Assembly: GCA_022562055.1 (NCBI GenBank)
Contig: JADFQA010000031.1
Location: 1 to 39,131 of the forward strand
DNA length: 39,131 nucleotides
Source of the DNA: Acidobacteriota bacterium
GTDB taxonomy: Bacteria; Actinomycetota; Acidimicrobiia; Spongiisociales; UBA5794
Direction: 5' to 3'
Shown: one piece after another, positions 14,737-25,284 of the stretch
Position numbering within the stretch: the stretch's first letter is position 1
Layout of the letters: the number at the start of each line of letters is the position of its first letter
Made by a program: the position numbers and the translations under genes
The notes under the pieces: generated by a model
Databases searched by the model: none
Told to the model about the DNA's origin: nothing
The model's input: only the letters and a program-made list of their open reading frames with translations

Positions 14737-15109
14737 GCCAGACACGACAGTTGCGCTAGTTGGTGCAACAGATAACCCAATGAAATACGGTGCGACGATC
14801 TATCGCAACCTGAAATCGAAGGGGATCCCGGTGGTTGCAGTCAACCCGAACCGGTCGACGGTCGACGGCGACCCCGCGTACGCGTCTCTCGCTGACCTTC
14901 CCGAGGCCCCGACCATCGTCAACCTTGTGGTTCCCCCACGAATCGGTCTCGGAGTGTTGCGCGACATGGCTGAGCTTGGATATCAATACGTTTGGTTCCA
15001 GCCCGGTGCGGAGTCGCCCGAACTGATTGCACTCGCCGATGAGCTTGGCCTCCACTACATCTCTAACGCTTGCACCATGGTGGTTGGGCGCACGCGGAGC
15101 AACGCCTAG
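14702..15109 (+). CDS. YccU-like CoA-binding protein
   Basis: A 135-residue Rossmann protein. VALVGATDNPMKYGATIYRN is the nucleotide-binding start, followed by GIPVVAVNPN, YASLADLPEAPTIVNLVVPP and YVWFQPGAESPELIALADE, the standard CoA_binding_2 layout (YccU in E. coli, 137 aa). The function is unproven; the domain binds CoA in acyl-CoA ligases. ATG 14702 gives the family length; longer starts at 14633 or 14681 add non-conserved residues. The stop TAG (15107-15109) is part of the CTAG at which the first IS481 element is inserted, so the protein appears intact. Confidence 0.8.
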   Translation: MNHLNLTTLLNEPDTTVALVGATDNPMKYGATIYRNLKSKGIPVVAVNPNRSTVDGDPAYASLADLPEAPTIVNLVVPPRIGLGVLRDMAELGYQYVWFQPGAESPELIALADELGLHYISNACTMVVGRTRSNA

Positions 15110-16080
15110 GTGTGCTCTTTGGGGAGGTTGTCCTTGAGGATGCTGTTGGGGGTTGCCCATCCGGGCGATCCGTGGTCTCGGTGGTGATTGTAGAAGTGGA
15201 TGAACCCTTGGTAGGCGTCGGTGCGTTGGCTTTGTGAGATCCAGGGTCCAATGTAGGCCCATTCTTCTAGCAGGATGCGGTGGAACCGTTCCACTTTCCC
15301 GTTGGTTTGGGGCCGATAGGGTCGGGTCTTTTTGACGACAGTGCCGGTGTCGGTACATGCCCGATACCAGAGTCCTGAGCGGTAACACGATCCGTTGTCT
15401 GTGATTACCCGCCCAGGTTTGATCCCGATCGATTGGTACCACGCTGCCGCCCGTTTCCAGAACCCCGCAGCGGTGGTGGCTTGTTCGTTGTGAAGGATCT
15501 CTGAATACGCAATACGGGTACGGTCGTCAATGGCGGTGTGGATATAGCGGTACCCGACTTGGCGGGACCTCGGACCCTCACCGGGGTAGCCGCGGCCCCG
15601 TGTCTTCCAGCCGCCACCGTCAGGGATTGCACCAAGTTTCTTGATATCGACGTGGATCAGTTCACCAGGCGTGTCTTGCTGATAGCGACGGACCGGTTCG
15701 GTGCGAGTGGCCCTGTCGCCACGATCCAGACGTCCCACACCGGCACGGTTCAAAATGTTCTGCACCGTCGATGCCGCCAGCCCCACCATGGAAGCAATGT
15801 GGTCGGTACCCCAACGGCGCTTCGTGCGCAGATGAATCACCCGTCGCCGTCTCGGGGTCCGGTTCGGCGACTGATGCGGCTTTGACGACCGATCCTGCAA
15901 CCCGTCAATGCCTTGAGCAACGAACCTGTCACGCCACTTGCGTACCGTCTTAGCGTCAACCTGGAACCGTTCCGCCGTCGTGACAATTGTCCATCCCTGA
16001 TCCAAAACGCACGCCACCATACGGCGGCGCCCTACCAGGGTGAGCGGCGCATTGCGATGCTGTGTTCTACCGTAAGCCAT
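15106..16080 (-). CDS. IS481-family DDE transposase, copy A
   Basis: A 324-residue transposase. The N-terminal HTH region (about 1-110) includes RFQVDAKTVRKWRDRFVAQG. The catalytic rve domain has GELIHVDIKKLG (first Asp), RVITDNGSCYRS (second Asp) and NGKVERFHRILLEEWAY (Glu). ATG 16080 has GGAGGG five to six bases upstream. The stop codon TAG (15108-15106) is formed by the target CTAG rather than by the element. It appears intact and presumably active. It differs from copy B at only about five residues. Confidence 0.94.
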   Translation of the reverse strand: MAYGRTQHRNAPLTLVGRRRMVACVLDQGWTIVTTAERFQVDAKTVRKWRDRFVAQGIDGLQDRSSKPHQSPNRTPRRRRVIHLRTKRRWGTDHIASMVGLAASTVQNILNRAGVGRLDRGDRATRTEPVRRYQQDTPGELIHVDIKKLGAIPDGGGWKTRGRGYPGEGPRSRQVGYRYIHTAIDDRTRIAYSEILHNEQATTAAGFWKRAAAWYQSIGIKPGRVITDNGSCYRSGLWYRACTDTGTVVKKTRPYRPQTNGKVERFHRILLEEWAYIGPWISQSQRTDAYQGFIHFYNHHRDHGSPGWATPNSILKDNLPKEHT

Positions 16081-16180
16081 GAGCCCTCCTTCGAGCTGCG
16101 AGTCGTTAACCCACAGTCCTACAAGGAGCGCTCACCCAAACACACCATCCACCCAGGGACAACGTCCCCGATTGTCACAC
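15110..16180 (-). mobile_element. IS481-family insertion sequence, copy A
   Basis: A 1071-bp element flanked on both sides by CTAG (15106-15109 and 16181-16184), consistent with a 4-bp target duplication at the IS481-preferred CTAG. Imperfect terminal inverted repeats of about 24 bp are visible (15110-15133 and 16157-16180): both start GTGTG and share GGGGA-GTTGTCC. It carries one transposase gene on the minus strand. It is nearly identical to copy B at 24170-25241, in the same orientation. Confidence 0.9.
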
Positions 16181-17032
16181 CTAGGCCGACACTGGCTCTG
16201 TGGAGGCTAAGGATGCGATCTGGTTGATGATCTCAGGTGCGCGGAGCACGCCATTGTGTCCGTGGCCTCGTGTGCTCACAAGGTTTACACCCCAACGTTC
16301 AGCCAGTAGCTTGGCCTCTTCGATCGGCACCATGTCGTCATCGACGTCGTGGATGATCAGGGTGTGGCCGGGTACGTTCATGTCGAGGATCTCTTTGGGG
16401 ATTCGGTCCCAGAGGTCTTGGCCGAATCTGTCCTCCATCGAGTGCTTAACCGCCTTGGCGACCGCGGGCCGAAGCTGAAGGATGGCTGCGAACGTTTCGA
16501 GAGCTTGATGGGGCCGCAGGCCGGGGGCCAGGAGTACAAGCCTGTCGGCTTTGAGCGAACGTTGCATCGCCATTGCTGTGGCCATTGCTCCCAGTGAATG
16601 GGCGACGACGATGTCGACCTTGCCGAGAGCGTTTCCGGCGATCTCGATGGCGTCCGCCATCTCGAAGGCGTCTGTGGAACGTCCGGCCTCGATGCCGTGG
16701 GCTGGGAGGTCGATGACCACACATCGGTAGCCCTGCTCTGTGAGCCGCTGGGCGATCCGGCGGTATTGGCGCGACGAGCCGGCCCATCCGTGGATCAGGA
16801 GGGCCGTTCGCGAACCATTGCCTGTCTCATAGCCGTGGACTACCGATCCCGCCGTCTCGAAGGTGATCCTGCGTGCCCCCGGTGGAATCTGCGGTGACCG
16901 AGGCCGCCCGAGTGGGAACGGCGTGAACCACAGATAGGTGGCGATACGGCCTGCCAGCGCGGGTGCGACGTACGAGAGGCCGGCGAGGCCCACGCTCACC
17001 GTCTTGAGCGCTGCCGCCTCCTTTCGGCTCAT
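16181..17032 (-). CDS. Alpha/beta hydrolase
   Basis: A 283-residue protein with an N-terminal hydrophobic stretch (about 10-38) and then a hydrolase fold. The oxyanion region is LLIHGWAGSSRQY, the nucleophile is Ser in VVAHSLGAMA (first Gly of GxSxG replaced by Ala), the acid is in IIHDVDDDMVP and the His in RGHGHNGVL. The substrate is unknown. ATG 17032 overlaps the stop of a 62-aa gene (ATGA). The TAG stop (16183-16181) coincides with the right-hand CTAG of IS copy A. It is divergently arranged with, and probably controlled by, the HxlR regulator at 17303. Confidence 0.88.
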   Translation of the reverse strand: MSRKEAAALKTVSVGLAGLSYVAPALAGRIATYLWFTPFPLGRPRSPQIPPGARRITFETAGSVVHGYETGNGSRTALLIHGWAGSSRQYRRIAQRLTEQGYRCVVIDLPAHGIEAGRSTDAFEMADAIEIAGNALGKVDIVVAHSLGAMATAMAMQRSLKADRLVLLAPGLRPHQALETFAAILQLRPAVAKAVKHSMEDRFGQDLWDRIPKEILDMNVPGHTLIIHDVDDDMVPIEEAKLLAERWGVNLVSTRGHGHNGVLRAPEIINQIASLASTEPVSA

Positions 17033-17217
17033 GCGACCCTCCGCACCTGAGGTGGGTCTTCCTGCATCAACCCGGCGGTCTCCGCGATCGGGCCGACGCC
17101 GTATTCGAGATCGGCCATGACCTCTTCGGGCGAGAGGCCAAGTTCGAACCCATCGAGATTGATCTCGATACGTCCCATAACAGCCTGTCGGGCTCTGTTC
17201 CTGTTGTTCCGCAACAT
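17029..17217 (-). CDS. 62-aa protein coupled to the hydrolase gene
   Basis: A short protein with a strong ribosome site (AAGGAGGAG just upstream of ATG 17217) and ATGA coupling to the hydrolase. It has a basic start (about residues 1-14), followed by an acidic segment INLDGFELGLSPEEVMADLE and a VGPIAETAGLM tail. No family is recognised. A longer in-frame start at 17337 would run through the operator and into the divergent hxlR gene and is unlikely. The coupling and shared operator suggest a small partner of the hydrolase. Confidence 0.65.
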   Translation of the reverse strand: MLRNNRNRARQAVMGRIEINLDGFELGLSPEEVMADLEYGVGPIAETAGLMQEDPPQVRRVA

Positions 17218-17230
17218 GTGCTCCTCCTTA

Positions 17231-17285
17231 GTGAGTTTTGTTGTGCAACCCACTATGGCATAGTTGGTTGCACAATGCAACTCAC
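17231..17285. promoter_or_regulatory. 55-bp symmetric operator between hydrolase operon and hxlR
   Basis: A two-tier palindrome centred on 17258. The outer arms are GTGAGTT (17231-17237) and AACTCAC (17279-17285). The inner arms are TTGTGCAACC (17241-17250) and GGTTGCACAA (17266-17275). Both pairs are perfect, with equal 3-base gaps. It lies between the divergent 62-aa/hydrolase operon and the HxlR gene, overlapping where both promoters must be. This is what a dimeric autoregulatory HxlR repressor operator would look like; binding is inferred. Confidence 0.75.
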
Positions 17286-17302
17286 TTAGGTATGATGTCG
17301 AC

Positions 17303-17815
17303 ATGGCACCGACAGAGTCCGGCGAGGCGGGCACCAACCGCTACGACATCGATTGCTCTGTGGCGCGAACCCTCGAGCACATCGGGGAGCGGTGGACTTT
17401 CATGGTCTTGCGCGACGCGTTCTACGGCGTCCGCCGCTTCGACGACTTCCAAGCCAGTCTCGGTGTGGCCCGGAACATCCTGACCAAACGTCTCACCAAG
17501 CTCGTGGACGCCGGGATCATGCGCAAAGAGTCCTACCAGGAGCATCCGCCCCGCTATGAGTACCGGCTGACTGAGAAGGGGCGGGATCTTGTGCCGATCC
17601 TCACCTTCCTTCTCGCATGGGGCGACAAGTGGGAGACCGAGAACGAGCCGCCGGTGCGGCTGATCCACACCACCTGTGGCAGGGTGATGCACACCCAGGG
17701 CGTGTGCTCGGTATGCGGCGACGAGATCAACGCCTTCAATCTGCGATTGGACCCGGTCCCACAGATCGTGGTCGAACGGGGCCTCAAATCGAAGCCGGCA
17801 GCCCACGCCACCTGA
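17303..17815 (+). CDS. HxlR-family winged-helix transcriptional regulator
   Basis: A 170-residue regulator. CSVARTLEHIGERWTFMVLRDAFYG followed by RRFDDFQASLGVARNILTKRL and later YEYRLTEKGRDL are the diagnostic HxlR/MarR-like winged-helix motifs, starting with the conserved Cys at about residue 17, a possible redox or aldehyde sensor. The C-terminal extension (about 115-150) has a CX(n)CX2C-like set (TTCGRVMH, CSVCGDE) that may bind a metal. ATG 17303 is preferred over a TTG/GTG at 17264, which would fall inside the operator. It is divergent from the hydrolase operon and probably represses it. Confidence 0.9.
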   Translation: MAPTESGEAGTNRYDIDCSVARTLEHIGERWTFMVLRDAFYGVRRFDDFQASLGVARNILTKRLTKLVDAGIMRKESYQEHPPRYEYRLTEKGRDLVPILTFLLAWGDKWETENEPPVRLIHTTCGRVMHTQGVCSVCGDEINAFNLRLDPVPQIVVERGLKSKPAAHAT

Positions 17816-17851: not shown

Positions 17852-18409
17852 CTATGTGGTTTTGGTGAGTTCCTCGTAGATCTCGTCCATCCTCTCGGGC
17901 GGATAAGGCCTGTCGTTGTCGAGCCACCAGGTCAGGAGTGCGAGGAGCGAGCTGGCGAGGAACCCTGCTCGAACCTCGATCGGGATGGTGGTCTGGTCGT
18001 TGGCGTCCGGGCGCCGTTCCAGCTCCGATGTGGCGTGACCCAGCAACGTGCTGTGGATCATCTCGGTGACGATATCGATCCCGCGACCGCCGAGCAGCGC
18101 CTTGTATAGATGGTGGTACTCGCCCAGGTGGCGAAACAGGGCGAGGCTCGGCATGGTCGACCCGGCGTCGGTTTGCTCCTGTGCCATGTGCAGCTCCATG
18201 TCATCGGCGAGCTGGGTCCAGCTGATGAGAAGTTCGTCTTTTGTCTCGTAGTGGGCGTAGAACGTCGACCGGCCAACGTCGGCCCGGTCGATGAGGTCTT
18301 GCACCGTTATCTTGTCGTAGCCCTTCTCGATGATGAGCGACTCGAGCGCGTCGTCGAGTCGCTGCTTGGTTCGGCGCACCCGCCGGTCCGGTGGTCGCTT
18401 GTTGGTCAT
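17852..18409 (-). CDS. TetR-family regulator, likely repressor of the DHA2 exporter
   Basis: A 185-residue protein. RRTKQRLDDALESLIIEKGYDKITVQDL followed by IDRADVGRSTFYAHYETKDELL is a textbook TetR HTH (about residues 10-57); the rest is the variable ligand-binding domain with a TetR_C-like YHHLYKALLGG. ATG 18409 is chosen. An upstream alternative at 18460 adds residues over the promoter. It is divergent from the DHA2-type exporter at 18640 with 230 bases between them containing two inverted repeats. That arrangement is usual for a repressor and its drug pump. Confidence 0.92.
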   Translation of the reverse strand: MTNKRPPDRRVRRTKQRLDDALESLIIEKGYDKITVQDLIDRADVGRSTFYAHYETKDELLISWTQLADDMELHMAQEQTDAGSTMPSLALFRHLGEYHHLYKALLGGRGIDIVTEMIHSTLLGHATSELERRPDANDQTTIPIEVRAGFLASSLLALLTWWLDNDRPYPPERMDEIYEELTKTT

Positions 18410-18479
18410 TGTTACCTTCTCGGTTTCCGGGCAATTGCTGGGGTGTGTCCCGTACCGCACGGTTCGGGGCTTTTGACTC

Positions 18480-24079: not shown

Positions 24080-24169
24080 GTCGTTGCGTTAATCGCCGCA
24101 GGCATCCTGTCATCGCAATTGTTCAGCAAGGCCTTCACGACCGAGTCCGAGTTCACGAACGATCCCTAG
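24080..24169 (+). pseudogene. Possible MMPL transporter N-terminal scrap at IS copy B
   Basis: Between the permease stop and IS copy B (23979-24165) the only coding-like stretch is VVALIAAGILSSQLFSKAF followed by TTESEFTNDP. It is cut off by TAG formed at the insertion site CTAG (24166-24169). A hydrophobic helix followed by F-T-N-x-P is how many MMPL/RND proteins begin, but the match is short and from memory, and no start codon is in place. If right, the insertion or a linked deletion removed the rest of the gene: the sequence beyond the element is not MMPL. Confidence 0.3.
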
Positions 24170-25140
24170 GTGTGCTCTTCGGGGAGGTTGTCCTTGAGGA
24201 TGCTGTTGGGGGTTGCCGATCCGGGCGATCCGTGGTCTCGGTGGTGATTGTAGAAGTGGATGAACCCTTGGTAGGCGTCGGTGCGTTGGCTTTGTGAGAT
24301 CCAGGGTCCAATGTAGGCCCATTCTTCTAGCAGGATGCGGTGGAACCGTTCCACTTTCCCGTTGGTTTGGGGCCGATAGGGTCGTGTCTTTTTGACGACG
24401 GTGCCGGTGTCGGTACAGGCCCGGTACCAGAGTCCTGAGCGGTAACACGATCCGTTGTCTGTGATTACCCGCCCAGGTTTGATCCCGATCGATTGGTACC
24501 ACGCTGCCGCCCGTTTCCAGAACCCCGCAGCGGTGGTGGCTTGTTCGTTGTGAAGGATCTCTGAATACGCAATACGGGTACGGTCGTCAATGGCGGTGTG
24601 GATATAGCGGTACCCGACTTGGCGGGACCTCGGACCCTCACCGGGGTAGCCGCGGCCCCGTGTCTTCCAGCCGCCACCGTCAGGGATTGCACCAAGTTTC
24701 TTGATATCGACGTGGATCAGTTCACCAGGCGTGTCTTGCTGATAGCGACGGACCGGTTCGGTGCGAGTGGCCCTGTCGCCACGATCCAGACGTCCCAGAC
24801 CGGCACGGTTCAAAATGTTCTGCACCGTCGATGCCGCCAGCCCCACCATGGAAGCAATGTGGTCGGTACCCCACCGGCGCTTCGTGCGCAGATGAATCAC
24901 CCGTCGCCGTCTCGGGGTCCGGTTCGGCGACTGATGCGGCTTTGACGACCGATCCTGCAACCCGTCAATGCCTTGAGCAACGAACCTGTCACGCCACTTG
25001 CGTACCGTCTTAGCGTCAACCTGGAACCGTTCCGCCGTCGTGACAATTGTCCATCCCTGATCCAAAACGCACGCCACCACACAGCGGCGCCCTACCAGGG
25101 TGAGCGGCGCATTGCGATGCTGTGTTCTACCGTAAGCCAT
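24166..25140 (-). CDS. IS481-family DDE transposase, copy B
   Basis: A 324-residue near-twin of the copy A transposase, with the same HTH and DDE motifs intact. Residue changes seen include R-R-M to R-C-V in the GRR-VACV segment, AGV to AGL, PGW to PGS and PKE to PEE near the end. ATG 25140 with GGAGGG upstream is the start; an open extension to 25257 crosses the element end and is not used. The stop TAG is supplied by the target CTAG. Confidence 0.94.
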   Translation of the reverse strand: MAYGRTQHRNAPLTLVGRRCVVACVLDQGWTIVTTAERFQVDAKTVRKWRDRFVAQGIDGLQDRSSKPHQSPNRTPRRRRVIHLRTKRRWGTDHIASMVGLAASTVQNILNRAGLGRLDRGDRATRTEPVRRYQQDTPGELIHVDIKKLGAIPDGGGWKTRGRGYPGEGPRSRQVGYRYIHTAIDDRTRIAYSEILHNEQATTAAGFWKRAAAWYQSIGIKPGRVITDNGSCYRSGLWYRACTDTGTVVKKTRPYRPQTNGKVERFHRILLEEWAYIGPWISQSQRTDAYQGFIHFYNHHRDHGSPGSATPNSILKDNLPEEHT

Positions 25141-25241
25141 GAGCCCTCCTTCGAGCTGCGAGTCGTAACCCACAGTCCCCCAAAAGGAGGGCTCACCCAA
25201 ACACACCATCCACCCAGGGACAACGTCCCCGATTGTCACAC
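24170..25241 (-). mobile_element. IS481-family insertion sequence, copy B
   Basis: A 1072-bp element with CTAG on both sides (24166-24169 and 25242-25245) and the same 24-bp imperfect inverted ends as copy A (24170-24193 and 25218-25241). It lies in the same orientation. Differences from copy A are a handful of substitutions plus small indels between the transposase start and the right end (about 25165-25195). Together the two copies bracket about 8 kb of efflux and regulatory genes. Confidence 0.9.
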
Positions 25242-25284
25242 CTAGGCCGCACGACATTCGGCTGCGGCCCGTTAGATTTTGCCG

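What the first reader, a model, noticed from the sequence alone, without database searches (positions are those of the whole stretch)
17231..17285. Two-tier symmetric operator for an HxlR-controlled hydrolase circuit
Perfect 10-bp inner and 7-bp outer inverted repeats share one centre (17258), with equal 3-base gaps. They span the whole divergent promoter region between hxlR and the 62-aa/hydrolase operon. The symmetry is far above chance and predicts a large dimer or dimer-of-dimers footprint with mutual control of both directions. HxlR proteins often sense reactive electrophiles via the conserved Cys seen here.
Basis: partly seen in the sequence, partly recalled or inferred. Interest (0 to 1): 0.5.

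Follow-up and report, generated by a model that had tools for sequence, protein, structure and literature searches.

The report
Paired, helix-phased HxlR regulator binding sites
The symmetric DNA between a regulator gene (hxlR) and a small enzyme operon looks like two side-by-side regulator binding sites three DNA turns apart, and the same pairing, usually spaced by whole helical turns, recurs before many related regulator genes.

Summary
The wider dyad, 27 of 32 pairs, is the best palindrome of the window; the next best has 20.

The "two-tier single operator" reading is recast. The block is two 25-bp operators, O1 (17230-17254) and O2 (17262-17286), 32 bp apart. Two tandem palindromes are symmetric about their midpoint anyway. 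In five orthologous loci both operators persist, while the perfect inner 10-bp repeat falls to 5-7 of 10.

A matrix from those six loci finds a site (score 12 or more) before 41 of 80 non-orthologous HxlR genes and in 1 of 1600 shuffles. Where two sites are found, they lie about 2, 3 or 4 helical turns apart: 36 of 39 loci in the discovery set, and 15 of 17 in a held-out set with bins fixed beforehand.

Best explanation: two HxlR dimers on one DNA face cover the promoters of hxlR and of the divergent 62-aa/hydrolase operon and repress both. Binding, repression, cooperativity and inducer are untested. No other near-match to the consensus was found in this genome.

The parts
17230..17254 (.). 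Operator O1, 25 bp, AGTGAGTT-N9-AACCCACT; covers the proposed start region of the divergent 62-aa/hydrolase operon
   Evidence: Imperfect dyad 7/12; conserved in 5 orthologous loci; in 138 genomes of the order the exact pattern occurs at 5 places, each upstream of an hxlR gene, reversed control 0
17255..17261 (.). 7-bp spacer ATGGCAT between O1 and O2
   Evidence: 4 of 7 columns invariant in six loci; palindromic here, not in L043 (ATTGCAC)
17262..17286 (.). Operator O2, 25 bp, AGTTGGTT-N9-AACTCACT; lies between and over the hxlR promoter hexamers
   Evidence: Imperfect dyad 9/12; conserved in 5 orthologous loci; 32 bp from O1
17268..17296 (+). Proposed hxlR promoter: TTGCAC (17268-17273), 17-nt spacer, TATGAT (17291-17296)
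   Evidence: Scan found the overlapping TGCACA-N16-TATGAT, 9 of 12, shuffles mean 0.1; TATGAT or TATCAT ends 6 nt before the ATG in all six loci; the TTGCAC-N17 register is my reading
17252..17280 (-). Proposed divergent promoter: TTGCAT (17275-17280), 17-nt spacer, CATAGT (17252-17257)
   Evidence: My reading of the sequence; it did not pass the scan; the -10-like hexamer reads CATAGT in five of the six loci and AATAGT in L043
17223..17229 (-). Ribosome-binding-site-like AAGGAGG of the 62-aa ORF
   Evidence: Sequence
17303..17815 (+). hxlR, 170-aa regulator with N-terminal Cys18 and a C-terminal H-x2-C-x9-C-x2-C motif
   Evidence: PF01638 83 bits; H122, C125, C135, C138 and C18 invariant in 16 homologues
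17029..17217 (-). 62-aa ORF, first gene of the divergent operon
   Evidence: Same length and 60-76% identical in 5 orthologous loci; overlaps the hydrolase start by ATGA; pairwise dN/dS 0.30-1.05 over 15 pairs, so the coding evidence from dN/dS is mixed
16181..17032 (-). alpha/beta hydrolase gene, 283 aa, second gene of the operon
   Evidence: PF00561 and PF12697; 74-88% identical in 5 orthologous loci

Best explanation
The block is a pair of tandem 25-bp operators for the neighbouring HxlR protein, with centres 32 bp (about three helical turns) apart. One HxlR dimer binds each operator, so two dimers sit on the same face of the DNA, probably cooperatively. O2 overlies the hxlR promoter and the -35 region of the divergent operon; O1 overlies the -10/start region of the divergent operon. 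Bound HxlR would therefore repress both its own gene and the 62-aa/hydrolase operon, and an unknown signal, perhaps read by Cys18 or by the C-terminal Cys/His motif, would release it. Shown by computation: the two sites, their conservation next to hxlR, and the helical quantisation of spacing across the subfamily. Inferred: binding by this HxlR, repression rather than activation, cooperativity, and the signal.
For: O1 and O2 are conserved in position and spacing in 5 of 5 orthologous loci; 26 of 32 half-site columns are invariant against 12 of 25 columns of operator middles and linker. A DNA-only pattern hit 5 places in 138 genomes of the order and 2 in 396 of the phylum; the six distinct places all lie by an HxlR gene (L058 confirmed by Pfam), and the reversed control gave 0. 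A matrix from the 12 sites of the six loci scores 12 or more upstream of 41 of 80 non-orthologous HxlR genes against 1 of 1600 shuffles. Density at score 10 or more is 128 sites in 41.7 kb of hxlR upstream DNA against 3 in 143.7 kb of the rest of 49 loci (broadened matrix, itself trained on 43 of those sites). Spacing in the 2-, 3- and 4-turn bins: 36 of 39 (bins seen there); 15 of 17 held-out loci with bins fixed beforehand. Period 10.5: R = 0.80 and 0.75, 0 of 20,000 random sets as high.
Against: 26 of 80 discovery loci have one site and 15 none at the threshold used; in the held-out set 7 of 35 have one and 11 none. The averaged second-site profile peaks at 32 bp (z 9.1) but also at 27 bp (z 5.6), is weak at 42 (z 2.0) and shows nothing at 22 (z -0.3), so the 2-turn class rests on individual loci. 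Spacings of 27, 29, 57, 35 and 36 do not fit. The promoter scan found only the hxlR promoter, not the divergent one. No binding or expression data; B. subtilis HxlR is an activator (PMC7835342), so activation of one direction is not excluded.
Confidence: 0.78

Rival explanations
1. One large two-tier operator, symmetric about 17258, bound by a dedicated tetramer (dimer of dimers) whose recognition depends on the common centre.
For: The 27/32 dyad in this window; two dimers at fixed spacing may well contact each other, so the models overlap.
Against: Symmetry about 17258 falls to 19-23 of 32 and the inner repeat to 5-7 of 10 in orthologues. In relatives the spacing varies by whole turns: 21-23, 31-33, 41-43. 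Some loci have three sites at the threshold, such as L140 and L139.
Confidence: 0.1
2. The palindromes belong to the neighbouring TetR-family regulator (17852-18418), not to HxlR.
For: A tetR gene lies about 40 bp downstream of hxlR.
Against: The operators persist in L042, L043 and L045, where no tetR match was found in the fetched flanks, and the motif occurs before HxlR genes throughout the set.
Confidence: 0.03
3. HxlR acts as an activator of the divergent operon (as B. subtilis HxlR does on hxlAB) while repressing itself.
For: B. subtilis HxlR activates hxlAB (passages of PMC7835342). O2 covers the hxlR promoter, so self-repression and activation of the other side could coexist.
Against: O1 lies on the proposed -10/start region of the operon and O2 on its -35, a repressing position; but that promoter is itself only proposed.
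Confidence: 0.15
4. The inverted repeat acts as RNA or DNA secondary structure (hairpin or cruciform).
For: Long inverted repeat, part of it possibly in the 5' leader of the operon.
Against: No terminator-like site in the region. The recurring unit is a gapped 25-bp site with helical phasing, which fits protein binding. No RNA folding was run here.
Confidence: 0.02

Closest known systems
CatR (MarR/DUF24 family) at the B. subtilis catDE promoter
   Same: Same protein family level; a DUF24 repressor with two boxes at one promoter (figure legend seen among passages of PMC6212828).
   Different: Box spacing was not read; the regulated genes are different; the window protein has a C-terminal H-x2-C-x9-C-x2-C motif.
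B. subtilis HxlR at hxlAB
   Same: HxlR family; sequence match to PDB 7bze, 7bzd. I recall two 25-bp tandem sites (Yurimoto 2005), but that paper is not held, so this is recall only.
   Different: Activator that senses formaldehyde by a Cys11-Lys13 bridge (PMC7835342 passages); the window protein has Val at Cys+2.
YodB/QsrR quinone-sensing repressors
   Same: Family, N-terminal redox Cys (passages of PMC6798810); PDB 5hs7 matched.
   Different: YodB uses Cys6 with Cys101/108; here the other cysteines form a C-x9-C-x2-C motif; no quinone gene is next to it.
4gcv and 2f2e (PA1607), solved HxlR-like regulators of unknown function
   Same: Best sequence matches in the PDB, E 7e-30 and 8e-25.
   Different: Alignments stop near residue 131, before the C-terminal Cys pair.

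Membership tests
HxlR/DUF24 regulators (PF01638) | Match to the HxlR winged-helix domain above the curated cut-off | tested here: met
   83 bits, cut-off 20.8
HxlR/DUF24 regulators (PF01638) | Conserved N-terminal cysteine | tested here: met
   C18 invariant in 16 aligned proteins
HxlR/DUF24 regulators (PF01638) | Dimer that binds a palindromic operator at its own or a neighbouring promoter | not testable with these tools
   Only sequence evidence: conserved dyads upstream of hxlR
Formaldehyde sensor of the B. subtilis HxlR type | Cys and Lys two residues apart on helix 1 | tested here: not met
   Cys18-Ser19-Val20; Val or Ile at that place in all 16; requirement from PMC7835342 passages
YodB-type disulfide switch | Second cysteine near the C-terminus that forms an intersubunit disulfide | tested here: inconclusive
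   C125, C135, C138 exist but in a metal-site-like pattern; no redox data
Helically phased tandem operators | Two copies of the site spaced by a whole number of DNA turns | tested here: met
   32 bp in the window and 5 orthologues; bins met in 36 of 39 and 15 of 17 two-site loci
Helically phased tandem operators | Cooperative binding that depends on phase | not tested
   Needs binding assays

The most novel reading that the evidence does not exclude
A whole clade of HxlR regulators with an N-terminal Cys and a C-terminal Cys/His motif, spread over many families of this phylum, shares one 25-bp operator code (nGTnnGTTgC-N5-gCAACnnACn) and places operators in phase-locked arrays at 2, 3 or 4 helical turns, so that dimers always stack on one DNA face; spacing, not a large palindrome, encodes cooperativity.
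Probability: 0.6. Interest if true: 0.55.

Novelty: new member of a known kind. Interest (0 to 1): 0.42.

Why it matters
HxlR regulators are common and most have no known operator. A site matrix that transfers from six loci to about half of 80 distant homologues, with a spacing rule that held in an independent set, lets targets of uncharacterised HxlR proteins be predicted from sequence and makes phase-dependent cooperativity directly testable. For this locus it predicts a self-regulated switch with one target operon: a conserved 62-aa protein and an alpha/beta hydrolase of unknown substrate.

Tried and rejected
The half-site search gave 54 matches at up to 1 mismatch, fewer than the reversed control (98), so half-sites alone are not informative. 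One search translated the wrong frame and one search had an off-by-one register; both were replaced and no number from them is used. A symmetry-only scan of upstream regions against simple shuffles was mostly not significant by itself; it only suggested the shared motif, which was then tested with a matrix. The averaged second-site profile supports 32 bp, also 27 bp, and not 22 bp. The AlphaFold model of the 62-aa protein is too weak to use (mean pLDDT 60); the HxlR model is weak overall (65) with the winged helix at about 77-89 in most blocks; no fold search was run on either. Pfam and NCBIfam gave no family for the window's 62-aa protein (a LEM-domain hit at E 0.033 in 2 of 6 orthologues is taken as chance). 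The second HxlR gene of the genome has only one weak site, 747 bp upstream of its match. One place (G643:C346, at a contig end) was dropped; the other 80 of 81 non-orthologous places were used. The bins 21-23, 31-33 and 41-43 were set after seeing (52-54 was added as the next turn); only one search tests them blind. Paper searches listed no paper on helically spaced HxlR operators; of the 84 papers holding the word HxlR only 40 were listed and titles/abstract starts seen, and most subscription papers are not in the library, so prior description is not excluded.

Full report
What is there. The inverted repeats are exactly as reported and form the strongest palindrome of the window: 27 of 32 pairs at centre 17258, next best 20. 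The block lies between the start of a 62-aa ORF and the start of hxlR. The HxlR assignment rests on PF01638, 83 bits.

Anatomy. The block divides into O1 (17230-17254, AGTGAGTTTTGTTGTGCAACCCACT) and O2 (17262-17286, AGTTGGTTGCACAATGCAACTCACT) with a 7-bp spacer. Each is an imperfect palindrome (7 and 9 of 12 pairs), and O1 matches the reverse complement of O2 at 21 of 25. Two palindromes in tandem are necessarily symmetric about their midpoint, so the common centre at 17258 needs no separate explanation.

Orthologues. Five orthologous loci (85-88% protein identity; L041-L045) carry hxlR, the 62-aa ORF and the hydrolase in the same divergent order. Both operators are kept at 32-bp spacing. The symmetry about 17258 drops to 20, 22, 20, 19 and 23 of 32 and the inner repeat to 7, 5, 5, 5 and 6 of 10. 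Half-site columns are invariant at 26 of 32 positions, against 12 of 25 in the operator middles and linker. TATGAT or TATCAT ends 6 nt before the hxlR ATG in all six loci, so hxlR may be leaderless (inference).

Specificity. The pattern AGTGRGTT-N9-AACYCACT has 5 places in 138 genomes of the order, with 0 in the reversed control; four are these orthologous loci and one (L017) lies upstream of a 46%-identical HxlR gene. In 396 genomes of the phylum it has two places, this one and L058, beside an HxlR gene confirmed by Pfam. In the window's own genome nothing else matches with 0-2 mismatches; at 3 mismatches there are fewer hits than in the reversed control (44 in all against 98). The genome is 97% complete in 83 contigs, so a missed site is possible, and a site far from this consensus would be missed.

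The subfamily. A matrix built only from the 12 sites of the six loci was run on up to about 350 bp upstream of 80 other HxlR genes of the class (80 of the 81 non-orthologous places; one dropped at a contig end). It scores 12 or more in 41 of 80 and 6 or more in 53 of 80, against 1 and 13 of 1600 dinucleotide shuffles. With a broadened matrix, 39 of 80 have two or more sites, 26 one and 15 none (shuffles: two or more in 0.05%). Spacings of the two best sites: 21-23 bp in 10 loci, 31-33 in 22, 41-43 in 4, others 3. With the orthologue-only matrix on 76 non-redundant loci, 49 have a primary site; the best second site falls in the bins (12 of 61 offsets) in 14 of 14 at score 10 or more, 20 of 21 at 5 or more, 25 of 27 at 0 or more, and 32 of 49 without threshold. 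The mean profile, however, peaks at 32 (z 9.1) and 27 (z 5.6), not at 22.

Held-out test. With matrices and bins fixed, 35 HxlR genes of the phylum outside the class (all such rows) gave 17 loci with two or more sites, 7 with one and 11 with none; 15 of 17 spacings fall in the bins, the others being 35 and 36. With the orthologue-only matrix it is 13 of 13. Across both sets the best period is 10.4 bp; with one value per family and spacing class, 30 of 33 lie in the bins. Outside hxlR upstream DNA, sites at score 10 or more are rare: 3 in 143.7 kb of 49 loci, against 128 in 41.7 kb. Two of the three form a 32-bp pair in L068 upstream of a thiolase gene that precedes hxlR on the same strand.

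Mechanism. O2 overlies the hxlR promoter that the scan found. A divergent promoter, TTGCAT-N17-CATAGT, can be read with its -35 in O2 and its -10 at the edge of O1, but it did not pass the scan. If both are right, two dimers on one DNA face shut both directions. Shown: sites, conservation, spacing rule. Inferred: binding, repression, cooperativity, signal. The formaldehyde bridge of B. subtilis HxlR cannot form here because the Lys is Val or Ile. The invariant H122, C125, C135, C138 look like a metal site (inference).

What is known. Two boxes for one DUF24 repressor are in print: CatR at catDE (PMC6212828, passages). I recall two 25-bp tandem sites for B. subtilis HxlR, but could not read that paper. 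The listed papers of ten searches did not describe helical quantisation of HxlR operators; the library is partial. So the locus is a new member of a known kind, and the phased operator code of the clade is the newer part.

Verdict. Real, well conserved and mechanistically readable, but of a familiar kind: interest 0.42.

Noticed in passing
window 15105-16192 and 24165-25252: Two IS481-type copies, same orientation, 98.4% identical over about 1090 bp, flank an ~8-kb block holding the hydrolase/62-aa/hxlR module, tetR, an MFS efflux gene and an ABC transporter: composite-transposon-like layout.
   Followed up: partly
window 16181-17815 and L041-L045: The hxlR module is 85-88% identical in genomes of three families of the order but was not found at that identity in the two held genomes of the same genus; the 62-aa protein was found in 3 of 60 relatives, the same three that hold the hxlR orthologue. 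This suggests horizontal transfer as a unit.
   Followed up: partly
L058 1501-1525 and L068 3225-3281: Operators also occur beside hxlR genes paired with a thiolase gene, divergent in L058, same-strand in L068, hinting at fatty-acyl or ketoacyl metabolism as targets of some clade members.
   Followed up: no
L140, upstream of hxlR (-117, -95, -62) and L139 (-133, -101, -78): Three sites at the threshold, spaced 22+33 and 32+23 bp: possible operator arrays.
   Followed up: no
loci L093, L097, L114, L125, L128, L133 upstream regions: The loci with 22-bp spacing tend to have GTTC/GAAC rather than GTTGC/GCAAC inner arms, so spacing class and sequence variant may go together.
   Followed up: no
L041, L042, L044, L045 record titles: The orthologue contigs are titled Acidobacteria bacterium, while the tools place some of them in the window's order; the labels may be wrong. 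I did not check the taxonomy.
   Followed up: no
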